Shown: positions 12,750 through 29,811 of the stretch, piece by piece
Position numbering within the stretch: the first letter of the stretch is position 1
How the letters are laid out: each line of letters opens with the position of its first letter
Assembly (NCBI GenBank): GCA_029717555.1
Contig: JAMDHS010000012.1
Span: forward strand, 186,001-250,000
Direction of reading: 5' to 3'
Source: Peribolospora baueri
Lineage: Eukaryota > Basidiomycota > Peribolosporomycetes > Peribolosporales > Peribolosporaceae
Length of the DNA: 64,000 bases
Translations under genes and position numbers: made by a program
The notes under the pieces: model-generated
Databases searched by the model: none
Seen by the model: the letters and a program-made list of their open reading frames with translations, nothing else
Told to the model about the DNA's origin: nothing

Positions 12750-13121
12750 GGTGGGGACGAAGACGACCTTTTTCTTCCAGCGTCGTTCCGAGTCCTGCAA
12801 TTGATCGATGAGCAGCGGTCAGGGCAACAGCTGATTAGAGTTGGTTGTATTGCCGCTTGAAATCGTCCTCGTCATGCCGCGTCGTCGCCCGCCCGCGTCC
12901 TTTGCTTTGTGCGACCATCACGGGCAGATTGGGATCGCAGAGACAGCTCAGCTCGTCTTTCCGCCTTGTCCTCTCCCGTTCATCTCTCCCTCCCTTCGCC
13001 TATTTCGTCTTTTCGCACTTCGTGCAGCATCGCACGCTTCTGTCTTTCTGCGGCACTGGCTGTCCAGCGGCGACGGCCGTCGCACCGCCTTCATCCCCGC
13101 GTGGGGCACCGAGTCGTGGCC
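12750..13121. promoter_or_regulatory. Divergent promoter, BCS1 / large disordered protein
   Basis: 372 bp separate the BCS1 start (minus) from the chosen ATG at 13122 (plus). It must drive both genes. CT-rich stretches precede the plus-strand ATG; no TATA box stands out. Confidence 0.5.
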
Positions 13122-16100
13122 ATGTCCAGTTTCAGGACGCCACCCGAAGGCGTGGAAGTTCGACGTCACCAAAACACAACCTCCCACCGTGAATTGCCCC
13201 CTCCCTCATTCATCGCCGACCTGCTCAACTCGTCTTCCATCTTGGACCCGCCGCCCGCATCGAACATGGCCAACCTTCCTCGCCCCGATTCACCTCGGCG
13301 CTCACCGCTGCCCGACCCCACGACACTTACGAGAACGCTCAGCAGGCCTGGCTCCGATCCTCTTTTACCCCACCCTGACACCTTTTCCAGCCTGCCCAAC
13401 CATCTCAGCAGCCTGCAGATCGCCGCAGAGGTGGCGAGGTTCGAGTATTTCAGGGATCATCCACGACCGCGCCCAGTCGGCGACCCCGAGTCGGGCCTTG
13501 GCACCGACGAAGGTCGACGCCCTTCCAGGTTGCAGCAAGGAGAGACGCCCGGGGAGAGAGCATGGTATGCGTCCGGCTGGCTCGCTTCCTCTCTCGAACA
13601 ACCCGACTCGGAAGAGGCACAAGTTCGAACCCACGCCGATGCGTGGGATCGACTGGTCGCCGACCTCGGCTCTTCCTCGCCCTCATCTCTCTACCCGTCT
13701 TACGCCTCCCCCTTTGCGAGCTCCTTTGCGCACGTCTATCACCGCCTCCAACCACATCCCATTATGGCTCGTCGATATCCCGGCCCAGCGGGCGAATGGC
13801 TCCGTGCCGAGCTCGAGCGGAGAAGTGCTCCTCAAGCTGGGCGTAGAGAAGGGACGGATCGGAACAGACGCTGGATGAGCGGCTGGGGAGCAGGTACAAC
13901 TTTTGACCAGAACTTGGCCGAGTTTGACCTCCGCTCCTCTGAGAGGCAAGCCGAGACGGACAGGCCGGGACTTGGTCTGAGTGACTCGACTCGATTGACG
14001 GACGCGGACGCTCAACGGCGCGCTACGCTCGTCCGATTGCTGCCGCGAGTTAGATTGAGTGCGGACAACTCGATAACCGCTCCGGACGATATGATGAACC
14101 TCAGCGATACCTCTAGTGAGTCCTCCAGCAACGATCTGCCAACGCCGACAGGCGACTACTCGCGGGGAAACAACCGAGACGAGGAGGACATGGTATTAGA
14201 GGGCAGTTATCTGTTGAACGCCCGGAGGCGATTGCTCGGGACCGCAAGGGCTCTTCAGAGGGAAGAACAGGGAGCGGGGAGGGAGTGGTCAGTAGTGAGC
14301 CACCGTCGTTCCGGCCGTAGGCCTTTATCATCGGATACGTCGTCGGCGTCGACGCTCACTGGCACAGTCACGCCACAAGCGTCGCGTGAGCCCGTGCGAC
14401 CGTCGGGCGCATTTGCGCGTGCGTTCCCTCTGTCCTCGCAAGCGGAACGACGTCCTTCTTCCTCCGGTACACTTAGTAGCACCGCACCTTCTTCTTCCGT
14501 CGCTCGACCAGCTTTGCATGCAAACGCTACCGTACCCCCGCCTCCTTTGCCAGGTCAGCCAATTCCCGTCTACGCGCCCTCGGGCTTACGCCATCGACCT
14601 CTCTCTCCTCGTCCCTCTGATCCGTCTTCCACCACTGCCGCCACCGCTACCCCTCCGGTTCCTCGTATGATCCCTCGTGATCCGGTCGCCGGACGCGAGC
14701 AGCCTGCACGATCTTTCTCAGGTTTGCTCGCGCATCTCGACGCTTGGAGCGGGAGCCCTGAAGCCATGGAGACGGACGATGATCACTCGGGAAGAGGATC
14801 GCGAAGTGTTGACGGGAATGCCGACGACGACGCTGGCGCGACCGGAGGAGACAATTTCGGCTTCGGAGGCCCAAGACGCTCGCGGCTGTTGGCAATGCGT
14901 CCTTTGGATCGACAAAACCCTTCGAACGCTGACGACCATTCCACGGCGGGCGGTCGCACGGAACTGCGGGTTGGCGTTGGTCAAGCCCGTTCAACTCGAC
15001 GTAGGGATGTTTGGCAGGGCGCCAGCGAAGCGGACCGGGAGGCGGAGCAGGCTCGGAGAAACAGGAACAGGAACAGTGTGGTCACGACACGGGAGGACGG
15101 CGAGTGGACGGTGGTAGGCAGCGAAGCGGCGGACGCTCGGCGGACCCCCTCGTTTACGATCAACCCCCCAGCCGCCTCAGCGTCTGAGAACGCCGCCGTA
15201 CAAGAGGCGACGGCTGAGCTGGCTTCCACTCTGCGCACCCTTCGCGACACGTTTACTTCTTGGGATGACGAACGGCTGCGCCCTGGTCGTTTCAACGACT
15301 CTACGGAGTTGCTTATCCGCGCTCTCGCTCATCTCGATTCGCCATCCCCTCCGGCTGACGCCGGGGAGGATGAAAACGCACGCCATCAGACCGTCGACAA
15401 CGGCCGACTGAGAGAGCTGCGCGTGCCCCGTAGACAAGCCTCTCTCAGTCAGTCCGAGCTCGAAAGCTTTCAGCGGTCGTCTGATCGCTCGGTGTCGTTC
15501 ACCGACCAGCAACGGCCGTCTCAGAGCTATTCTCGCGGTGATGGAGATGGGCATGCAGCGGCGGCGGGTGGGGTTCGCATGCAAGCGCTAGGCAGCGGCG
15601 AAAGCATCGGCACCGGGGCCAACTTGGTTCGAAGACGAAGCATGCGCGAGAGTCTTGTTCCGTCGGGGCTCTCTATTCGTCGACAGCGCCACGCTGCGCT
15701 TGGAGAGCACCGCATGGGCACGGCAGCGTGGGGCGATGATGATATGTCTGTCGTGGCGACTGCCGGGTCAGAAGAGACAAGAGACCGCCGGATGGAAGTC
15801 GAGGACAGCGGTGCCCAGTCAGATGACGACAAGGACAACTCCGCCTCTTCCTCCGCCGTCGACGGTCCCTCTTCTCGTCCACTCCACTCCCTCCCTTCGC
15901 GACACACGCTGGCCTCTCGCTCCAACCTTAGGCGCGCCGGGCGCGCCGGTACCGGCACTGACACAGGCGCGTCCGTGAGAGGTTCGGCGGCATCTCGACG
16001 CGAACGGCCTCCCTTGAGGGCGGTTTATCCGCCCCAGCCACGCTTACCCTCTACGCTCTCGACAGCCACCTACCCGCTCCGATTCGAGCTCGTGGAGAGC

Positions 16101-17789
16101 AACGACGATGATCCCGTGCTCAGCACAGCCGTCAACAGCGGCGCCGAGGATGAGCATGAGAACGGCAACGAGAACGACGATCGCGACCCCCCTACGCCCA
16201 CCGCTGCCTCGTCTGCACGCGATATCTTGGGCTCGGGCACCTCCGTCGGTTCATTGCATCGTCGCTCGTCCGTTCTCAGTGGCCAAAGCGGCACAGCATT
16301 TAGCCGTGGTCAGTTGAGCCCAGCTCGCGCAGCTCGGGCGATCCGTGGCCTACGCGTGAGGCGGAGCAGCGTGGGCGATGCGAGGAACGTGTTCCGCAAC
16401 GACGAGAGCATTTACAGGACCAGACGCGGTCGCAACGTCGACCTTGTCATGCGCTTTCTCGTCGCTGTGCCGCCTCATTCGTCTTCGACTTCGTCGTCAT
16501 CGGCGCTAGCTGCAGTGGCAAATTCCAGTCAGCCTCCCTCTGTGTCCACGGCGACGGCGGAGCATAACGAGGCTGAGGGCGAGCGTGTCGCCGGATTGTC
16601 TCGTAGGGGTTTGGAGGGGAGCCATACCGAGTCGGGGTTGCAGACGGCAAGGCTGGGTGACGTAGAGGACGTAGGGATGGCGAATGTGGATGCTTCTCAG
16701 CCTGCACATGCAGAGGAGCTGGAGCAGGAAGAGGTGGAGGACCGAGGTCCCATATTCACCCTCACGAGGATGGTTCTCAAGGTGCCGGCGAGGAGAGGAG
16801 CGGCGGCGGTCAGGTGCGTGCACTTGACTGATTCGCTCGCTCTGCCATTGCCAGACGGTGGCAATATCGGAGACATGACGGGACGAAAGGGTTCGCTCAC
16901 CTCTCTGTCTTCGTCCTCGAATTCTCCTTGTGCTGGAATGCCCGGGTGTAGCGAGGGGATGGTCTTCATCAGCTTCGACCCCATCTGTCCGGAAGGTGAG
17001 CGCGTCTGCAGAGCGCTGGCAGTTGGTTGCTTCGCTGTACTGATCCAGTCCATGCGGCTGTCAGACCTCGCATACTACAATGATTTCACCGCGTCGGACG
17101 TGCAGGATCTCGTCGATCGTACCGGCATCGTCGGCCCCGGTCTTGCCCCCTCGGCGCGCACGGCCCCTCACCAGGTGGAAAGTGGTGGGAACCGGCGCCA
17201 GAGGGAGGAGGTCGAAGGAAAGGAGGAATTCGAGCAGGAAGGAGACGCCGACAGGGGAACCTTCAAGCGACGTCGGCTGAACGGGTACGGCAGTAATGGA
17301 TTGGGTACTGACGCCGACTCCGAGGCAGGCGACGCCGATGCTCGGTTCGATCCAGCGACCGTCTCCCCTAGCTTTGCCGCCCTCCGAGTCAGTTCCCCTG
17401 CCATCGCTCCTAATCCGCCCCGCCCTCCCATTCTTCCCGCAGCTTTCTTCTCGTTCCCGCCCTCAACTTATCAGACCGAGCTTAACTTCCTCGACCAGCC
17501 TCAAAGGGGCCTCGGGGGTCGCTATGTCGCCGTCAAGCTCCTTCGCGCAAGGAGGGATCCGGAGGCTCTGGTTACGTTGTCAAGGTTGACCGGGGCCGCG
17601 CGAACGGAACCGGATCGGAGCTCGCGCTCGAGGCCAGGAGGTGCTGCCGGTGGTGCAAGACCAACGAATGGAGGAGAGGAAGGGGTGGAGGACGCGGAGT
17701 TGTACTACGATGACATGGAGGTGCAGTGGGTCGGCCTCATGGGCTACACCGGCAGGAGGTCGTTCCAGAGCTCCGGCGAGCTCATTTGA
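13122..17789 (+). CDS. Large disordered protein with ordered C-terminal block
   Basis: A single exon of 1,555 residues from ATG 13122 (MSSFRTPPEGVEV) to TGA at 17787. The frame is open back to 12909, but the extra residues look like untranslated leader. Most of the protein is Ser/Arg/Asp/Pro-rich and probably disordered. Two ordered stretches lie near the C-terminus: one around PIFTLTRMVLKVPARRG followed by FISFDPICPEGERVCRAL, the other around YVAVKLLRA and then MEVQWVGLMGYTGRRSF at the very end. The last segment (beta-strand, long loop, strand, GY-G) recalls galactose-binding/DOC-type beta-sandwich folds, but this is a weak, memory-based resemblance. Function unknown. The absence of introns contrasts with its neighbours. 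Confidence 0.75.
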   Translation: MSSFRTPPEGVEVRRHQNTTSHRELPPPSFIADLLNSSSILDPPPASNMANLPRPDSPRRSPLPDPTTLTRTLSRPGSDPLLPHPDTFSSLPNHLSSLQIAAEVARFEYFRDHPRPRPVGDPESGLGTDEGRRPSRLQQGETPGERAWYASGWLASSLEQPDSEEAQVRTHADAWDRLVADLGSSSPSSLYPSYASPFASSFAHVYHRLQPHPIMARRYPGPAGEWLRAELERRSAPQAGRREGTDRNRRWMSGWGAGTTFDQNLAEFDLRSSERQAETDRPGLGLSDSTRLTDADAQRRATLVRLLPRVRLSADNSITAPDDMMNLSDTSSESSSNDLPTPTGDYSRGNNRDEEDMVLEGSYLLNARRRLLGTARALQREEQGAGREWSVVSHRRSGRRPLSSDTSSASTLTGTVTPQASREPVRPSGAFARAFPLSSQAERRPSSSGTLSSTAPSSSVARPALHANATVPPPPLPGQPIPVYAPSGLRHRPLSPRPSDPSSTTAATATPPVPRMIPRDPVAGREQPARSFSGLLAHLDAWSGSPEAMETDDDHSGRGSRSVDGNADDDAGATGGDNFGFGGPRRSRLLAMRPLDRQNPSNADDHSTAGGRTELRVGVGQARSTRRRDVWQGASEADREAEQARRNRNRNSVVTTREDGEWTVVGSEAADARRTPSFTINPPAASASENAAVQEATAELASTLRTLRDTFTSWDDERLRPGRFNDSTELLIRALAHLDSPSPPADAGEDENARHQTVDNGRLRELRVPRRQASLSQSELESFQRSSDRSVSFTDQQRPSQSYSRGDGDGHAAAAGGVRMQALGSGESIGTGANLVRRRSMRESLVPSGLSIRRQRHAALGEHRMGTAAWGDDDMSVVATAGSEETRDRRMEVEDSGAQSDDDKDNSASSSAVDGPSSRPLHSLPSRHTLASRSNLRRAGRAGTGTDTGASVRGSAASRRERPPLRAVYPPQPRLPSTLSTATYPLRFELVESNDDDPVLSTAVNSGAEDEHENGNENDDRDPPTPTAASSARDILGSGTSVGSLHRRSSVLSGQSGTAFSRGQLSPARAARAIRGLRVRRSSVGDARNVFRNDESIYRTRRGRNVDLVMRFLVAVPPHSSSTSSSSALAAVANSSQPPSVSTATAEHNEAEGERVAGLSRRGLEGSHTESGLQTARLGDVEDVGMANVDASQPAHAEELEQEEVEDRGPIFTLTRMVLKVPARRGAAAVRCVHLTDSLALPLPDGGNIGDMTGRKGSLTSLSSSSNSPCAGMPGCSEGMVFISFDPICPEGERVCRALAVGCFAVLIQSMRLSDLAYYNDFTASDVQDLVDRTGIVGPGLAPSARTAPHQVESGGNRRQREEVEGKEEFEQEGDADRGTFKRRRLNGYGSNGLGTDADSEAGDADARFDPATVSPSFAALRVSSPAIAPNPPRPPILPAAFFSFPPSTYQTELNFLDQPQRGLGGRYVAVKLLRARRDPEALVTLSRLTGAARTEPDRSSRSRPGGAAGGARPTNGGEEGVEDAELYYDDMEVQWVGLMGYTGRRSFQSSGELI

Positions 17790-18416: not shown

Positions 18417-21400
18417 TCAGTACCGCATCTGGACGGATAACTGCGGCAAAGAGTTGAACCAAGAAGTCATGTTACGAATGGGAGTGGAAAGGAAGGCTCA
18501 CCTTCCAACCGTGTGTGTTTGCTGCGCGTCTGTAGCCTGCAATAGCCTCTGTGATCGTGTAAGGCCTGTTATAGTCGTACGGGCGTATTGATGAGTATCA
18601 GAACGTTTGTGCGAGCTCGTTTTCCGTCAGTGACCTCCGCGCAGTCTTTGGACCACTCACCCAGTTGTACGCGAGCCTCGCCGGACGCGGCTCGCCGTCG
18701 GAGATGGCTAGCCTAATCTGCATGAGTACCGCTTCCATGGAGTAACTTTTGTCCCAGCCGCTGTCGGTGAGCTGGTTAATCAATGCAGAAGAGAACACGA
18801 AGGCGGAAGGTGCACAAATATCAACTATCGGCTTATGAGCTCAGGATGCCAGCAAGTCGGGTATCACGCCAACGCCATCCGACCTGTGCACTGACCAAGT
18901 CAATACAAATCGAACCGCCCCCGGTGATATGCCCTCCACCGCCCTCCACGAAAGGAAGGACTCGCGGTGTAATGAGCCGGACGAAGGGCGGCGTAGATTT
19001 ATAGTCGGGTGGGAAGCGGATCTCAAAGAGGAACGAGTTGATATTGCTGTATAACCGCACGTCGTAGATGTGCAGAACAATGCAACTCCATGAGTACAAG
19101 TTCCGATCGCCGCCACCAAGGGGCGGAGGAGTATGACCGCAAAAAACGCACGCACTTCTTCTTCATGTCTTCTGCTATCGGTGAGCTGGGGTCGAACGAG
19201 TGCAGTTCGACAATCCACTGGAAAAGGTTGTCCTTGTTCTTATTGAACTCGGGAGGCTGTTCGGGGGCGCCAACAGAGGAAAGACGACGTGGCAAGGAAG
19301 GAGCAACGTAAACACTGTGACCCCCGAAGACTTCTCATTCCATAAGAAAGCGGATGTAAAAACGGCTCACCAAGTAAAACCCGAGCTCCTTCAAGCTCTT
19401 CGCCTTGTTCTGCAAGTTAAGCACCGCATCGTACTCGAGCTTGACTGCCCTTGCCGCCCCCCTAGATGCTTCGTCTGGCGGCGGCAGCAGCTTGACTAAC
19501 GTATGGCTGATTTTCCCTGGTTTCTAGTTGCCAAGAAAAGATGAGCATGCGAGACGACGTCAGTCATGTATAACAATGAGGCTTCTACCTCAACGGCTTC
19601 ATAAAATCGGGCCCTTTCTCACCCAATCGTCCTTGGGGCGGATGGGCAGCACCGAGGCCGCCTTGTGCAGGCTGAAGACGCGGTGACCATCCTTAGGAGC
19701 TTTATATTTCTTTCCCTGCAGGACGGCCCGATCTTCCTCGTCATACAAGTCGTCTCTGCGTTCGCCCCGCCTCGCCTTGACCAGCTGGTCGATTTTTCCC
19801 TGCATGCTCGGGATCTGAACCAGTTCGTTTTCGTAGTAAAGCGGGTATGAAGGATCTTGGTCAATCAAGGCGGTGACTGACCAGCCTGCGGCGGAAGCTT
19901 TGAGTTTGTGGCTCGACCCATGGAACGTCTCCACGACGAGGTAACTGTAGGGAGTCGACTCCTAAGTATAAGCAGGTTTGTTGAATGGATACGACGGCGT
20001 GGATAGCAACTCACCGGGCCATGATCCAGTCGGTGTTGTCAATGACCAAGGCCGGGGCCCTGCAGACGAACCTCTTGGGCTGATTGACGATCTCGGCTAT
20101 CAATAACAATGCGCATGGGCGCAGTTGACTAGACCGCCAGAAGGTGGAAGTTGTCTTGGAGTATTTTCGCATCATCTTCCCGTCCCTCGAGAAGTAGACA
20201 CCATTTCCATGCGATCGGCCGTGCTTCATCTACGAACCGAAAAGAGGCGCCTGTCAGACAAGTCCCGATGTCCATTCAGCCGCAGGTTCTCACCATTTTG
20301 TAATGCAAACCGACGCGGATTATCTGGAAGGGAATGAGGCAAACGGGGAGCGAAGTCGGCTCACCGACCTCTCGCATAGAAGCAACAACCCAAAGGAGAG
20401 AAAGTAGACTTACTGAATGCCAGTCTTCCACGCAGCTTCCATGAAAGGCGTATATTGTAGGATACAGAACTGCGTTATGGTCCTTTGCCTTTGCGTCCTT
20501 CACCGCGCGCCGAAACCGTTCCTCTTTATTGGGCGCTCCGAACAAGAAGCGAAACTGGCGCCACTCGTTGTTATCTGAAGTCCAGTAGGCCGTAGATGGT
20601 GAGAAGTGGGGGATTAGCCATTGTCGGATACGACGGGCGAGGAGAAGACGCACGCAGAGACACGAGGTCGTCCTCGTTAGTAATATCCTCAATGTGGGCC
20701 TGACAGGAAGCGACGCACCTGTATCGAGACGTCCAAGACAATCCAGCCGTCAGCTCGGTGATCACGCGTGAACCAGGCATGGACTCAGGACCGACCAACG
20801 GAGGACTTTCCAAGCAGCAGGAGCAATCTCCTTGCCATGGGATTTATCCGCTATGGTCTCAGATTTCTACATACAGTAGAGAGGTCACGGAGTCAGTGGG
20901 TGGCCCTGATGGAGGGGGGTGAACATTCCACTCACGACCGTGAAGGGCAGCCTGTCAAAATCGACCAATCCATCCGATCCCGGCCCCACTGCGTCGCTGG
21001 GGGAGTGGTTACTCTGATGCGTGGGCTGGGAGCAATTGGGTGTCGGGACGCGAATGCCCATGCCCGTGGGCAGACTCCCGTCAGGTTGTAGACCCCCGTC
21101 CCGGGCGGCCACGTACGTCAGCGAGACGAGGAGATCGACGACCGTCGGGTTGTTGACGATCTCGCGTTCGACGGACAGGCCGAGTTTTAGCTTATAGTAC
21201 TGGTCCGCACAAACTTCGGATTCGCAGACGTGACTTCGACACAGGGACGCGCACAAGGTCAGCCTCGCATTCACCGCGATGCAAACGGGTCGAAACTAGG
21301 AACTCTTCGTCCTCACGGAATGAGCGTCTCAATATCAGTACCGGTCCTTTTGTGACATACCACGCAATACAGAGCGCTGAGCTGCATGCGCGCGAAGATG

Positions 21401-23413
21401 AAATGCCTGGGTTAAGTTCTGAGCCAGATACAGGCGCCAACCACGTTCCAAAGGTGGCGAAACGGAGAACTCACCATCAGCCTTCTGACGAGAAAGGAAT
21501 ACGCCATCCAAGGCAAGTTTTGATGCGAGGTTTTGGCCGTGTCGAGATAAAGAGAGTCGGCCGGAAGGGTGTGCCGCCATCTTACATCCAGTTCAGCCTG
21601 ATCGGCGTTGTTGATACCCTGAACGCGACGGGAACATGTGAGACGTTTGCACTGAACTTCTCTGCGTAGGATGAGAACTATTCAGTGCTTACATCTTTGA
21701 ACCTTTCAAAGACGCGATCTGGCCGTTCCTGCAGCTCAACGACCTTGGCCAGGAGCAACTCCGCGCCAGCCCACCCGATTTCAAACGAGATGCGAAGGTC
21801 GACAAGGCGCATAAATTGGTCGTTGAGGACGCCCTCGAGACTCTCGCTCAGAGAGAAGCCTTCAAAGTCTCGTTTTTCGTCTTCTCCTGACGTTCCCTGG
21901 ACTCCCTCCGCTGTCTGCAGCAAGACATTGCGACAAGGCTTGGACGATTGGCACAGACCGACGTGGAAGTTGATAGAAGTCTCAGGAGACACCGAGAAGG
22001 TGCGCTGGGTACGAGCCACTTCGTCGAGCGAGTACGGGTCCTGCAGGCCACCGATAATTAGGACGAGATGATACGACCTTTGCCAAGGCGAGGGGAGGTG
22101 GTAGGAGAGGACAGACCACCAGTTCAACGGCAGGGATGCGATAAAGCGGAGACACGCTCAACTCACTTCTCCAGCAGACGCGGATCCCGGGCTATGAGAA
22201 CTTCGGGTTCAATACCGAGATCGAGTACCCTGCAAGATACGGCGAGGGTAAAAGAGGTAGGAGAGAAGCGGGTCATGCTGGGCTGGTAGCCGGCTGAAAT
22301 CACTTGCTTGAAGTCGCTGCACGATATAAAAAGGGGAAGCGAGTTTATGTCACACAAAAGAGCCGATGGACAAGAGACGACTACAAAGACAGACGCATAT
22401 GCAAGACGCTGACCTTTGCAAAACTTTAAGCTGTTTCTTTTGGCCGCCGAAGCAGTCGTCGTCGTCATCATCATCATCCTCTTCAGAGCGATTCCCGTCC
22501 TCGCCATCGTCGCTCGGGAGGGGCGAGGAGTCGATTTTGTACGGGCTCGCGAAGAGGTGTCGGGGCAAGCTATAGACTCCGTTGGCGATCTCCTGAACGA
22601 TGAAGACAATGGTATCATGGAGAGGTCTAGGCTGAGCGGTGGATACAGATTTAACGGCGGCGGTCGCTGATAAGGGGTGAGCATGAGACGAGCGCAGACG
22701 AGCGATGTGAGATCCTTTGCAGAGCGTGCGAACAAAGAAAAAAAAAAGAAGGGTTGTAGACTCGCCATCGGCAGAACTTTCGTCATTCAACGTGGCGACG
22801 ACGGAATGAGCCTTCGGGTAGTCATTCGTGTCTGTAGAGGGGGAAGAACGAGCCGACGAGTCAATAGCCGCGCCCGGTGTCGGTCGAACGAGAACGACAA
22901 ACGCATACGAGTAATGACGAGCGTCACAGAGCAATCGATGGCAGGAGAAGGCCCTCCCTCTACGTCAATTACCACATGACATGTGCCTTCGTCCCTTCCC
23001 TTGGTGAGGCCTGCGAAAGAAAACGTCGGGCAGGCGGGAAGTGAAGACGAATGAAGGAGCTCCCTGGGCGCCCAGATAGGGGCTTGACAGAAGGGAGAGA
23101 AGGACGAGTGGCTCACGATTAACGATCGCAACCCCGTGGTCGTCGACCGCCCACGGCTTCTTTCGAGTCAGCTCATCTACATCATCCAAGAAGCCGCGAC
23201 GTCCTATCTTGGCGCGGGTGCTACCTCCTTGCCAGCCGGTCTCGCCCTTGCCGGCCGCTCGTGTGGTTATTGAAGTCGAAAGAGCCGAGCCTCCGTCGGC
23301 GCGTTTCTCCTGCGCCTTGGCCTGAGCAGCCTTGATGCGTGTACATAACCAACTGGAAGAGGTTTTCATTTCTGCTTCTTCATCACCTGGTATTCGTCGG
23401 GCGAGGGTACCAT
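18417..23413 (-). CDS. ADP-ribosyltransferase (PARP)-E2 ubiquitin-conjugating fusion
   Basis: A many-exon gene coding for a PARP catalytic domain followed by a UBE2Q-like E2 domain. Firm coding segments, N to C: VYSLPRHLFASPYKID with an Asp run (about 22.4-22.7 kb); a helical regulatory-type region (21.7-22.1 kb); the PARP core with YAFHGSCVEDWHS (about 20.43 kb), IIRVGLHYKM (20.3 kb) and HGRSHGNGVYFSRD (20.2 kb); TDWIMARYLVVE (about 20.0 kb); a linker ending KELGFYL (19.4 kb); then the E2: NLFQWIVELHSFDPSSP (19.2 kb), FEIRFPPDYKSTPPFVRL, HITGGGSICIDL with the active-site Cys (18.9 kb), LTDSGWDKSYSMEAVLMQI (18.7 kb) and TITEAIAGYRRAANTHGW (18.5 kb). Several joins are clean (GTAAGT, GTGAGT, GTCAGT donors). 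The N-terminal exons upstream of 22.7 kb, the start at 23413 and the donor near 18.67 kb are provisional. The His and Tyr of the PARP H-Y-E triad are visible, but no Glu at the third position, which suggests mono-ADP-ribosylation. Confidence 0.8.
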
Positions 23414-24789: not shown

Positions 24790-27700
24790 TCAGAGCTCGT
24801 CGTCCGTGAAGACCTCCTCGCCGCGCTTCCTCCGCGCGATGCGGTCCTTGCGGGCCTTCCTCTGCTCGCTCGACGTGAGCTTCTTCTTCTTTTCTGCCTT
24901 GGCAACCTTGTTGCCAAGCGCGTCGAACGTGTCCTCCTCGTCGCCCTTCTTCTGGTCGATACGGGGCCCGGATCCTTGACCCTCGACCCAGTTGTGGCCG
25001 GAAGCGACGAGATGGCCCTGGTGGGGGGAATGAAAAAGGGAGGAAGAGGCGTCAGTGAACATTCATTATATATATATGATTAAACAGACTGCAGAGGGCG
25101 TCGGTCCACGCAAAGGATTGGACACTCACGTCCTTCATGCTCCAGACTTCCGTGCAGATGCTCTCGGAGAATTCGCGCGAGTGGGTGATGACGAGCACAC
25201 CACCCTCGAAGACCTTGAGGGACTCGATGAGCGCGGCGAGCGACTCACGGTCGAGGTAGTTCGTCGGCTCGTCAAGGCAGATGACGTGCGGCCTGCGCCA
25301 CGTAGCGGCGGCGAGGACGACCTTGACCTTTTGGCCTCCGGAGAGACCGCGCATGGTGTTGTGCGAGACGAACTCGGCCTCGAGACCAAAATCGGCGAAG
25401 TGCTTCTCGATCTCCTTGCGGACGAGCGGACGGAGGAGACCAAGGCGCTGGGCTTCCTTCGTGTCGATCTCCATGACCTTCTTCTCGAAACCGCGGGTGA
25501 TGAGCTCGTCACGGGACATCCAGATGTTCTCCGTGGACGAGAGACCCTTGAAGCTGATCTCGTAACGGTAGGACTGCTTCTCCTTCAGTCGGCCGACAAT
25601 GTCGTCGATGATGCGCTTCTGGCCCTCCACGATGACCGTGCCGCCTTCCTTCATCTTCTTCTCGTCCTCCTCGGTGACCTGGCGGTTGATCTTGGACAGC
25701 TCCTCGCGGTCCTCACCGGTCTGGTAACGCCAGATCATGTAGTCGAGCGGAGTCTTCTCGAGGTGGTGGTCGATGTGGTGGAAGGCGTGCTGGGCGACGT
25801 AGCCGATGACCAAGTTGGGGTGCTTCCACACCTCACCGCCCTTGTTCGGCTCCGTCTCGCCGACGAGCAGCTTGACGAGGGTCGACTTGCCGGAACCGTT
25901 GGGGCCAAGGACAGCGACACGGGAAGAGAGCGAGACCTGGAGGGTGACGTCGTACAGCTGCTGAACCTTGGACGTCGGGTACTGGAAGCCGACGTTGCGC
26001 ATCTTGAGCAATGACTTCTCCTTGGTCTTGACACCGTCAAGAAGGGGAGGGTCGGGGATCTTGAAGTGGTAGTCCTCGGCCGGCGAGAGCTCGTAGTAGG
26101 ACTTGGCCTCGGGGACGTGCTTGACGAAAGACTCGAGGTTGCCCGGGTAGCGCTTGACCTTGAAGTGGTTCAGGTGGAGCACGTCGGTGATAGTGTTGTT
26201 GAGGAAGCCAGAGTCGTGGGACACGATGATGGACGTGCATTGGGTGAGCGAGGTGAGATAATCCTCGAGCCACTTGACGTTGAGGACGTCAAGGTGGTTC
26301 GTGGGCTCGTCGAGGAGGAGAATGTCGGCCTTGAAGAGCATGGCGCGGGCGAGCGCGAGCTTCATCTTCCAACCGCCGGAGAGCGAGCCGATGGCGTGAG
26401 TTTGACGGTCGTCAGAGAAGCCGACGGACGCGAGCGTCTTGGCGACCTCTTCCTTGTCCGCCTGGATGCGCTTGTCGGAGACGACAAATTCGAAAACGGA
26501 GGTGTCCTCCTCGGAGCCGTCGATGTCGTGCTCGACGTAGAAGGTGCGGACCTCGTCGGGGGAAGGGAAACCCTCGACCTGGCCGTTGACGATGGCCCTC
26601 ATGAGCGTAGACTTGCCGGAGCCGTTGCGGCCACAGAGACCGTAGCGGTGACCACGCTTGAGGCGGAGGGTGGCCGTGTTGAGGAGAATCTTGGCGCCGT
26701 AGGCGAGGGAGAACTGGCAGTTGCAGAGGTCCTCACCCTCCTCCTCGTCATCAAAGGCCTCGACCTCGTCACCGGCGCTGCTCGCGCTCTTCTCGAGCAC
26801 CTGGCGGATGATGCCGTGGGCCTTGTGCGGGTCCTCGGGGGTGGCGAGGACGACGTACGGGCTGAGGGCCTGCTCCCACTCGGTCGCCTCGAAGTTGCGA
26901 GCCTGAGCAAGGTTGGCGGCCAAGGTGGCGATGTAGTGGACGAGGGTGGCGTCGACCTTGGAAGCGTCCAGACCGGCGTCCTTCATGGCGTTGTTGAACA
27001 GAGGGCCGGTGATCTTGGCATCGATGACCTTGGGAGGGGGGAGGTCGGTGCCGTCGCCGTCGATCTTGCCGACGGAGCGGAGGGTGGCGATGGCGCGGTT
27101 GACGACGCCACGGGCCTCGGGGTCAGCGACCGTGCTCTCAATCTTGATGAGACCGGGGAGAAGCTTGGGCAGGAAGGGGCGGACGGTGTGCTCGTTGTCG
27201 ACCAGCTTGGACATGTTGTCGATGATGACGGCGACCTTTCGCTTCGTGGCTGTCGGCCTCTCAGTAAGACCACGAGAGAGCAAGGGGGCCATGAGCGAGA
27301 GGGTGGGCGAGTCGACCTCCTGGACGAAGGTGGTAGCGGAGAGAAGCTGGATCGTCTTGGGAACCTCCTCGACGGGGTTGATGAGCGAGGAGATGAGAGC
27401 GGGGATGAACTTTTCAATGTCCTTGTTGGACACGAGAGCGCACGCCTTGGTGAGGGAGGCGCGAGCGGCCTTCTTGACGTCGGCCTTGGTGTCCCAGATG
27501 GCGTCGGAGAGAACGGGAATGATGTCGGGCATGCCGCGAGCGATCTGGTCGGCGGACGAGGTGATGAGCTGGTCGAAGACGTCGAGCGAGCCCGTCTTGA
27601 CCTGCCACTTGCCAGCCGTGGTGATCTGGTGGAGGAGCTTGGGGAGGATGGCCGGCGTGGTCCAGGGGCTGGCGATCTGAACGAAGCTGCGAACGGCGTC

Positions 27701-28093
27701 GGCGGCAGCCTGACGGGCGCCCGGCGTCTTGTCGGCGAAGGCCTCGAGGAGCTGGTCGAAGACCTTCTCGACGATGAAGGGCTCCACCTCGTGGCCGACG
27801 CCCTGCTCGCAGAGCGAGGAGATAAGCGCCGCGGCGCCCTCGCGGGCGGTGGCGTTCTTCTTGTCGTTGAGACCCTTTAGGATGGCGTCGGCGACGCCGA
27901 GGGTGGCGACGCCCGAAGGGCCGTTCACCTTGACGAAGTCGACGAGCTCCTGAACGGCGCCCTTGTCGGCCGACTCGATGATTTTGGTGACGTCGATCTG
28001 GGCCGCGGCGGCGTCGCCGCCGGCGCCAGACTTGACGTCCTTGGCGGGGACGGTGGCGGGGGTACCAGCAGAAGCGAGGGCAGCAGGGGCCAT
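24790..28093 (-). CDS. TEF3: Translation elongation factor 3 (ABC-F ATPase)
   Basis: Fungal elongation factor 3: a cytosolic ATPase that binds the ribosome and helps release E-site tRNA in each elongation cycle. Two exons, 25130-28093 and 24790-25017, join in phase 0 (AAGGAC|GTGAGT ... CACCAG|GGC), giving 1,063 residues, close to the usual ~1,045-1,055. Order: N-terminal HEAT-repeat region (to about residue 430); ABC1 with Walker A GRNGSGKST (about 485), signature LSGGWKMKLALARAM and Walker B LLLDEPTNHLD; ABC2 with Walker A GPNGSGKST (about 730), the chromodomain-like insertion (about 800-900), signature LSGGQKVKVVLAA (about 917) and ICLDEPTNYLD; then a basic Lys/Arg-rich tail in exon 2. The coding strand is strongly GC3-biased, as expected for high expression. 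The ATG at 28093 sits just after a likely 5' UTR intron. Confidence 0.97.
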
Positions 28094-28095
28094 GT

Positions 28096-28341
28096 CTGTA
28101 TTTCTGGAAGCCAGGAAGAGAGGGGAGAAGAGCAGTGGAAGGAGGTGCGGAAAAGAGAGGAAGGGAGGAAGGATGATTGGTGGCGTAGGTGAGTGAGGGT
28201 GGGGGTGGGGGGCGTGAAGGGCGAAGGCGGAAGGAGGGAAAAGGGAGAGAGAAAAAAATTCAGTCGGTGCCCTGGAGGTGCGGAAAAGAGCGGCGGGAGG
28301 CGGTCGGCGGCCAAAAAATTTGGGAGGCGTTTGCCACTCAC
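28096..28341 (-). other. Probable 5' UTR intron of EF3
   Basis: Read on the minus strand, a strong donor CACGG|GTGAGTGG lies at 28341, and an acceptor AAATACAG ends at 28096, two bases before the EF3 ATG. The 246 bp between them are pyrimidine-rich toward the acceptor. Leader introns next to the start codon are common in highly expressed fungal genes. Confidence 0.6.
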
Positions 28342-29811
28342 CCGTGTATCTAGCGGAGAGAATAAGTTTGTTCGAGACTTGTCTAGTCTAAGAGGAGCGT
28401 TACGACGAGGGTAGAGAGACGGTGGCGAAGACGAGTGGGATGCCGTGCGTGGGTAGATAGAGGACGGGTAGGTGGTGCCTGCCTGAGGAGGTCGTCGAGG
28501 GAGACCGAAAGGGAGACGGTGGCGTGGGTGGAGGGAAGAGCGAAGAGGTATGCTCTATGATCCTTTTTAAGAGTCTACTGGGTGGCGAACGAGGCCAACA
28601 AAGAAAGACGGCGACGAAAGCGGTGGGGAGGGGATGGGGATGGTGGGAGGGTGAGGAGGAGGAGATGGTGGTCCGCTCCCAAGGCCCCCTGTCTTCCGCG
28701 CGCCTTTTCTACTCCCCACCGCCTAAGCCGTGCCCTGCCCTCCGACCCGACGCCACCGCGCCCGACCGCAGTTTTTTCTCGCCTTTGGGCCTCCGTCCCT
28801 CCGTCCCTCTCGTCCCTCTCTCTGCCTATTTCCTTTCCTGGCCTCCTCTGCTTGCCCCTTTCTTGCCCTCTCTCCCTCCCCATTCGAGCCCGCCTTCGCT
28901 CCCTCCCTGCGCTTCCGTCTGAGCCTCGCCGAGTGTCCGCTCCGGGTGTGAGTGGAGGAAGGAGTGCCACACACATCTTCCACCTATACCATACCGTCTC
29001 GTCTCCTGGCGAAGCAAGCAAGCAAGCGACCGTACTTTCTTTCACTGCACCGGGTGGGGATGGGAAGCATAGCGTTCATGTTGTCCTACGCTGGCCGGCG
29101 GTACCGTCAACGCAAACGAACGGGACGGCGACCGGCTCGGGCAGGCTGTCAAGTGCCTGGGGAGGCGTCGTCTTCAAAAGCGGGGGGTGCTCTGACCGCG
29201 TTGAGACAGACCAGACAAGACAAGAAAGGAAAACGAGTTGCCTGGAGCTGTCCGTCCGCGAGGGCACGGCATGAGACTTGATGAGACTGGGGCCGCGGGC
29301 CTTCCGAGGGAGGCGGCGTGAAATTTGTCTACCGGGCCAAGATGGCGGGCGCGGCTGAGGTCGGAGGAAAGGCAATCGTTGGTTTCACTTTGGCTTTTAC
29401 TTCACTTTCACTTTCACTTTCATTGCCCCTTTTGGACACCTCAGACGCGCCCTCGGCCTCGCCCAACTGCTTACCGACCGTCGCCACCTGATCCGTCGGA
29501 ATGTCTCGACCCGACCACACGCCCGCCCATGTGCCCGCCCATGTGCCCCCTTCTTCTGACACAGCAACTGCAACATGGATCGGACGTCGCCCGACGCGCG
29601 TGCTTACCTAACCTACTCAAAAAAAAAAAACTCGGCGGCGGGCGCCACAATAGCGAGCGTTGCCGTGTCGTATCGGCTCGGCTCCTTTTACGCTGTCCCC
29701 GTCGCCGCCACCGCACCCGTACCTACAACCAGACATGTGGCGAGCTCGCTCCGCCCGCATTCGGATGGTATGGGAAGCCAGTCTTCTTTCCGTTCGTCCC
29801 CAGGTGGTGGG

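What the first reader, a model, noticed from the sequence alone, without database searches (positions are those of the whole stretch)
18417..23413. One protein joins an ADP-ribosyltransferase to a ubiquitin-conjugating E2
Seen: PARP-type segments (AFHGS...WHS, HGNGVYFSRD) and, further along the same strand through compatible splice sites, an E2 fold with GGGSICIDL and GWDKSYSMEAVLMQI. Known: GG-(S/A)-IC-(M/I)-(E/D)-L is the UBE2Q-type active site; PARP-UBC fusions have, as I recall, been noted in filamentous ascomycetes. Inference: both activities sit on one chain, so it may ubiquitinate ADP-ribosylated targets or attach ADP-ribose to ubiquitin or its own E2. The apparent lack of the third-position Glu argues for mono-ADP-ribosylation. 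A basidiomycete copy with an intact E2 cysteine would be useful for asking how these modifications are linked.
Basis: partly seen in the sequence, partly recalled or inferred. Interest (0 to 1): 0.75.

Follow-up and report, generated by a model that had tools for sequence, protein, structure and literature searches.

The report
Fungal ADP-ribosyltransferase fused to ubiquitin E2
A fungal gene encodes one protein carrying both an enzyme domain that attaches ADP-ribose and an unusual ubiquitin-attaching enzyme domain; the fusion has been known since 2010, but this copy looks intact and its ubiquitin half is of the type that can attach ubiquitin to sugars.

Summary
Observation confirmed. On the minus strand, 23369-18417 holds a 20-exon gene (19 GT-AG introns of 61-124 nt) whose 1102-aa product joins a PARP catalytic domain (His695, Tyr726) in frame to a C-terminal E2 with its cysteine (Cys1025). 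Single-chain homologues confirm the fusion: best E 1.7e-155, 43% identity over 99% of residues 500-1102. The kind is not new: Citarelli 2010 described fungal 'Clade 6A' PARPs with a C-terminal UBCc, and Perina 2014 names Basidiomycota among carriers. What I add: the E2 is UBE2Q-type. The family keeps two of three residues (His409, Trp414) that UBE2Q1 needs to discharge ubiquitin, with His in place of Tyr343. The third PARP-triad residue is Ala here and never Glu in the 318 of 332 compared proteins aligned there, which fits mono-ADP-ribosylation. The fusion also occurs in chytrids, Glomeromycotina, a fern and a ciliate. Favoured mechanism: a two-step writer that mono-ADP-ribosylates and ubiquitylates the same target, possibly on the ADP-ribose itself. 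No activity is shown. Uncertain: start codon, part of exon 3, exon 18/19 junction.

The parts
18417..23369 (-). whole gene model, 20 exons, 1102 aa: N-terminal RWD-like domain, central region, Cys-rich motif and alpha-helical domain, PARP/ART catalytic domain, linker, UBE2Q-type E2
   Evidence: splicing; homologues; Pfam
   Evidence: N-terminus not fixed by homologues
22909..23010 (-). exon 2, RWD-like domain strands
22414..22831 (-). exon 3, RWD-like YPxxH motif and helices; holds 29-32 residues absent from the homologues measured (possible missed intron)
22167..22316 (-). exon 4, central alpha/beta region
21693..22077 (-). exon 5, central region
21475..21618 (-). exon 6
21317..21381 (-). exon 7, first pair of the Cys-rich motif (Cys490, Cys493)
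20936..21233 (-). exon 8, second pair of the Cys-rich motif (Cys509, Cys514) and alpha-helical domain
20796..20866 (-). exon 9 (the model is 28-34 residues shorter than homologues within or next to this exon)
20654..20718 (-). exon 10
20414..20574 (-). exon 11, ART catalytic domain with His695 (codon 20443-20441)
20294..20323 (-). exon 12, ART catalytic domain
20015..20229 (-). exon 13, ART catalytic domain with Tyr726 (20196-20194) and third triad position Ala774 (20052-20050)
19623..19944 (-). exon 14, end of ART domain and linker
19371..19523 (-). exon 15, linker and region of the first E2 helix
19156..19256 (-). exon 16, E2 domain
18896..19046 (-). exon 17, E2 domain with active-site Cys1025 (18907-18905) and His1017 at the UBE2Q1 Tyr343 position (18931-18929)
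18635..18771 (-). exon 18, E2 domain; 3' end uncertain
18502..18565 (-). exon 19, E2 C-terminus with His1092 (18513-18511) and Trp1094 (18507-18505), the UBE2Q1 His409 and Trp414 positions
18417..18440 (-). exon 20 with stop codon

Best explanation
The gene makes one bifunctional protein: a PARP6/8/16-type mono-ADP-ribosyltransferase followed by a UBE2Q-type E2, both with their catalytic residues. Shown by sequence and by models of homologues: one reading frame, both domains, His695/Tyr726, Cys1025, no triad Glu, no HPN motif in the E2. Inferred: the ART domain puts a single ADP-ribose on a target (or on the protein itself), and E1-charged ubiquitin on Cys1025 is passed to the same target. Because UBE2Q enzymes discharge onto hydroxyls and sugars in an assay without an E3, the acceptor may be Ser/Thr or a ribose hydroxyl of the ADP-ribose, not only lysine. 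Physical linkage would make the two marks coincide.
Against: No activity has been measured; Citarelli 2010 states that no Clade 6 PARP had then been functionally characterised. The UBE2Q1 Tyr343 position is His in the family; in UBE2Q1 only Tyr343-to-Phe kept discharge among the triad mutants tested, so hydroxyl activity may be lost or altered. Four of 299 proteins have another residue at the ART His and 17 of 304 at the Trp. This copy has Ala at the third ART position, seen in only 2 of the 332 compared proteins, and lacks 28-34 residues before the ART domain. The exon 18/19 junction, next to His1092 and Trp1094, is not settled.
Confidence: 0.5

Rival explanations
1. The ART domain regulates the E2 rather than a shared target: it ADP-ribosylates ubiquitin, the E2 domain itself or a partner (E1/E3) and so switches ubiquitin transfer on or off.
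For: Both domains are tethered, so modification in cis is easy; links between ubiquitin and ADP-ribosylation exist elsewhere (PMC9527308, passages; PMC10951314, passages).
Against: No acceptor site was looked for or found here, and nothing in the sequence points to ubiquitin as the ART substrate. For DTX3L/PARP9 the supposed ADP-ribosylation of ubiquitin was later assigned to the ligase's RING-DTC part.
Confidence: 0.2
2. Only the E2 is catalytic; the ART domain is a degenerate or binding module (for NAD+, ADP-ribose or protein), at least in this species.
For: Ala at the third triad position in the window (2 of 332 others) and 28-34 residues missing before the ART domain; human PARP9 is reported inactive (passage).
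Against: ART His and Tyr are kept in 295 of 299 and 311 of 311 proteins with a letter there; known mono-ARTs vary at the third residue (recalled).
Confidence: 0.17
3. Only the ART is catalytic; the E2-like domain is an inert ubiquitin-binding or structural module.
For: No HPN motif, and the UBE2Q1 Tyr343 position is His.
Against: The E2 Cys is kept in 315 of 317 proteins with a letter there; UBE2Q enzymes without HPN are active.
Confidence: 0.08
4. The gene model is wrong and the two halves are separate genes, or the copy is a decaying gene.
For: Two stretches and one junction do not match homologues, and six junctions lie at alignment gaps.
Against: Continuous frame through 20 exons; single-chain homologues at 43% identity over 99% of residues 500-1102; His695, Tyr726, Cys1025 and the four Cys of the Cys-rich motif are present.
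Confidence: 0.05

Closest known systems
Citarelli 2010 Clade 6A PARPs (fungal PARP with C-terminal UBCc and N-terminal FPE)
   Same: Domain order, E2 cysteine kept, triad Glu absent, long N-terminus with RWD-like FPE (PMC2964712 section 12 read).
   Different: Window copy has Ala at the third triad position and lacks 28-34 residues before the ART domain relative to four homologues. The Pfam-B domains named there could not be tested.
PARP6/8 homologues with UBCc in Ascomycota, Basidiomycota, moss and Chlamydomonas (Perina 2014)
   Same: Cys-rich motif CX2CX9-19CX4C (here CX2CX15CX4C) before the PARP domain, and an additional UBCc (PMC4245714 section 11 read).
   Different: Hits here add Chytridiomycota, Glomeromycotina, the fern Ceratopteris and the ciliate Stylonychia. 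Six names searched in the main text (Batrachochytrium, Rhizophagus, Stylonychia, Oxytricha, Selaginella, Spizellomyces) were absent; supplements were not read.
UBE2Q1/UBE2Q2 (metazoan non-canonical E2s)
   Same: Best solved relatives of the E2 part by sequence and fold; no HPN; His409 and Trp414 equivalents kept; UBE2Q1 also has an RWD domain before its UBC (PMC10951314 passage). PMC11354881 (passage) reports UBE2Q-type domains in Ascomycota and Basidiomycota; these may be the fusions (inference).
   Different: Fused to an ART; His replaces Tyr343; the C-terminal His-to-Trp spacing is shorter (HGW).
PARP16 (and human PARP6/8)
   Different: PARP16 carries no E2 (general knowledge); third triad residue Tyr254 in PARP16 (number recalled) versus Ala here and mostly His or Tyr in the family.
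DTX3L/PARP9 and other Deltex E3s making ADP-ribosyl-ubiquitin
   Same: Couples the two modifications; hydroxyl ester chemistry (passages).
   Different: Deltex is a RING-DTC E3 that works with a separate E2; here the E2 itself is tethered to the ART, and no DTC domain was listed in the protein.

Membership tests
Clade 6A fungal PARP-E2 | PARP catalytic domain and C-terminal UBCc on one chain | tested here: met
Clade 6A fungal PARP-E2 | E2 active cysteine present | tested here: met
   Cys1025
Clade 6A fungal PARP-E2 | Glu of the HYE triad absent, His and Tyr mostly kept | tested here: met
   His695, Tyr726, Ala774; Glu in none of the 318 of 332 proteins with a letter there
Clade 6A fungal PARP-E2 | PfamB_2311 domain before the PARP domain | not testable with these tools
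   Pfam-B is not held; in a homologue model an alpha-helical domain superposing on PARP16 precedes the ART
Clade 6A fungal PARP-E2 | N-terminal FPE, RWD-like | tested here: inconclusive
   Model of homologue P0002 shows helix, four strands, two helices with a YPxxH turn, pLDDT 92-97 for residues 11-120, but a profile search of solved structures listed no RWD entry and profile comparison with the E2 part found no similarity
PARP6/8/16-type mono-ART | Cys-rich motif CX2CX9-19CX4C | tested here: met
   Cys490/493/509/514, spacing CX2CX15CX4C
PARP6/8/16-type mono-ART | mono-ADP-ribosylation activity | not testable with these tools
   needs enzyme assay
UBE2Q-type E2 | E2 closest to UBE2Q, no HPN motif | tested here: met
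UBE2Q-type E2 | His409 and Trp414 (of the YHW triad) | tested here: met
   His1092 aligns with His409; Trp1094 follows at a shorter spacing, equivalence inferred; family counts 299 of 305 and 287 of 304 with a letter
UBE2Q-type E2 | Tyr343 (of the YHW triad) | tested here: not met
   His1017 in the window; Tyr in none of the 324 of 332 proteins with a letter there. So it is UBE2Q-like, not filed as a UBE2Q orthologue
Deltex-type ADPr-ubiquitin ligase | DTC domain | tested here: not met
   not among the three Pfam matches of the protein at E up to 1

The most novel reading that the evidence does not exclude
The fusion is a one-protein writer of the hybrid ADP-ribosyl-ubiquitin mark: the ART domain attaches ADP-ribose and the tethered UBE2Q-type E2 esterifies ubiquitin directly onto a hydroxyl of that ADP-ribose without a Deltex E3, with His1017 (in place of Tyr343) serving this acceptor. 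The mark would then be older and wider (fungi, ferns, ciliates) than its animal Deltex version.
Probability: 0.15. Interest if true: 0.88.

Novelty: new member of a known kind. Interest (0 to 1): 0.5.

Why it matters
ADP-ribosylation and ubiquitylation are now known to be joined on one target in animals, but the writers described in the passages read are separate proteins. Here both catalytic domains lie on one chain across fungi and beyond, and the E2 is of the family that, with UBE2J2, was found to use glucose as acceptor in a panel of 23 E2s. That makes a simple in vitro test possible: does one purified protein, given NAD+, E1, ubiquitin and ATP, make a hydroxylamine-sensitive ADP-ribose-ubiquitin conjugate? 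The family has been listed since 2010; Citarelli 2010 states that no Clade 6 PARP was functionally characterised then.

Tried and rejected
Third triad residue: I first took Tyr787 (RYLVV) as the third ART residue, and the notebook checkpoint still says so. The PARP16 alignment shows that the position is Ala774 (PARP16 Tyr254, number recalled); corrected with the counts.

Central region as a second E2 or pseudo-ART: profile comparison of residues 166-285 and 166-420 of P0002 with its E2 and PARP parts, and of 166-285 with its N-terminal part, gave probabilities under 1% each; not supported. N-terminal part against the E2 by profile: also under 1%. N-terminal profile against solved structures: six entries up to E 10, none an RWD; the best (E 0.012) is a uteroglobin-based design.

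Genome searches for PARP, PARG, DTC and PARP_reg gave nothing, but their controls were silent and the PARP model missed even this gene (split by introns), so absence is not shown. ADP_ribosyl_GH and WGR found nothing while their controls rang in 5 and 2 of 14 genomes; this is weak evidence of absence because introns hide genes. A search with the window's own E2 found only this locus (three exons) plus a weak HPN-type E2 on contig C115 (E 0.019), so no separate UBE2Q was found, with the same caveat.

The fold lists are filled by PARP and E2 entries; the N-terminal and central parts were barely tested by fold.
Full report
What was claimed. Both motif sets are there on the minus strand.

Gene model. 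I joined the open segments by hand at GT-AG sites and translated the result: 20 exons from 23369 to 18417, introns 61-124 nt, 3309 nt coding with the stop, 1102 residues, no internal stop. Unsure places: the start codon (23369 in the model; 23413 is possible with a further intron); exon 3, which carries 29-32 residues that four homologues lack; exon 18, whose GTCACT donor adds 7 residues absent from those homologues, since the stronger GTGAGT donor just before it gives the wrong frame; and a stretch after junction 8 where the model is 28-34 residues shorter. Against nine homologues, 12 of 19 junctions align without a gap within about five residues in 8 or 9 of 9, one (junction 5) in 3 of 9, and six in none, some of these only through one- or two-residue gaps.

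Is it more than chance? Pfam finds PARP (E 2.9e-8) and UQ_con (E 1.4e-6), both over cut-off. A search of about 5.8 billion proteins with residues 500-1102 gave 207 proteins at E <= 0.001 among 7997 scored candidates, of which 120 are listed. The best is E 1.7e-155 with 43% identity over 99% of the query, a single-chain protein of 1104 aa from Punctularia strigosozonata. By my count of that list, 105 of 120 carry both Pfam labels, 13 the PARP label without the E2 label and 2 the E2 label without the PARP label. The named rows are, by my reading of the names, basidiomycetes; eight rows have no name.

N-terminus. In the full-length homologue model, residues 11-135 form helix, four strands and two helices with a YPxxH turn, pLDDT 92-97 for residues 11-120, the topology I recall for an RWD domain. 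Sequence profiles do not confirm it. Citarelli 2010 reports RWD likeness for this part, and UBE2Q1 itself is RWD plus UBC (PMC10951314 passage). A tempting reading, not proven, is that the fusion is a UBE2Q-like E2 with an ART placed between its RWD and UBC parts.

Spread. Beyond Agaricomycetes, ascomycetes such as Penicillium, Trichoderma and Hypoxylon, Pucciniomycotina (Microbotryum, Rhodotorula, Meredithblackwellia), chytrids, Glomeromycotina, the fern Ceratopteris and the ciliate Stylonychia carry it. This updates Citarelli 2010, which found no PARP in the two Pucciniomycotina then available and only a Clade 1 PARP in Postia placenta (passages); a Postia fusion protein is now listed (P0007). 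The fern and ciliate copies keep the same His, Cys, His, Trp set of the E2.

Genome setting. The search with the window's own E2 finds no second copy and no separate UBE2Q. Of the 23 UQ_con matches in the genome, eight loci were fetched and all eight show HPN; L007 and L008 are overlapping pieces of one region. One macrodomain gene of MacroD-like sequence (NAANNSLLGGGG, then GAIHRAAG after a gap taken as an intron; label recalled) is present on C134. The other genome searches are not informative because introns split the matches.

How it most likely works. Both active sites are conserved over a wide range of species, which argues that both are used. The simplest use of the linkage is to put the two marks on the same target. 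Whether ubiquitin goes to the ADP-ribose itself, as Deltex ligases do in animals (PMC12687431 passages), is the bold version. The UBE2Q chemistry makes it reasonable, the Tyr343-to-His change leaves it open, and only an assay can decide. I did not find this proposal in print in the listings of the searches; most listed papers were not opened. 'UBE2Q' does not occur in the main texts of PMC12687431 and PMC12000418 (of the second I saw only the term counts). The library holds open-licence papers only.

Verdict. The value lies in the testable link to non-canonical E2 chemistry.

Noticed in passing
window 12861-17789, + strand: A 1642-residue open frame (stop to stop) convergent with the PARP-E2 gene; rich in Ser, Arg and acidic residues by eye, no Pfam match at E <= 0.01.
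   Followed up: partly
window 25055-28387, - strand: Elongation factor 3 (EF3 HEAT repeats and ABC domains by Pfam) in one long open frame upstream of the PARP-E2 gene.
   Followed up: partly
L009 (own genome, C134:388092-388250): MacroD-like macrodomain exons, a candidate eraser of mono-ADP-ribose in the same fungus.
   Followed up: partly
proteins P0026 and P0086: Two Agaricomycete PARP-E2 proteins also carry ankyrin-repeat Pfam labels; could be domain gain or an annotation fusion.
   Followed up: no
protein P0330: A 571-residue PARP-E2 from an unnamed source, 38% identical over 23% of the query, keeping the ART His and Tyr and the E2 Cys; its host is unknown.
   Followed up: no
E2 domains of P0143, P0176 (Cladophialophora), P0242 and others: Asn replaces His at the UBE2Q1 Tyr343 position in 11 of 332 proteins; a natural variation useful for testing that site.
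   Followed up: no
ART third triad position across the family: His is the commonest residue there (177 of 332 proteins), giving an unusual H-Y-H triad in just over half of the proteins compared.
   Followed up: partly
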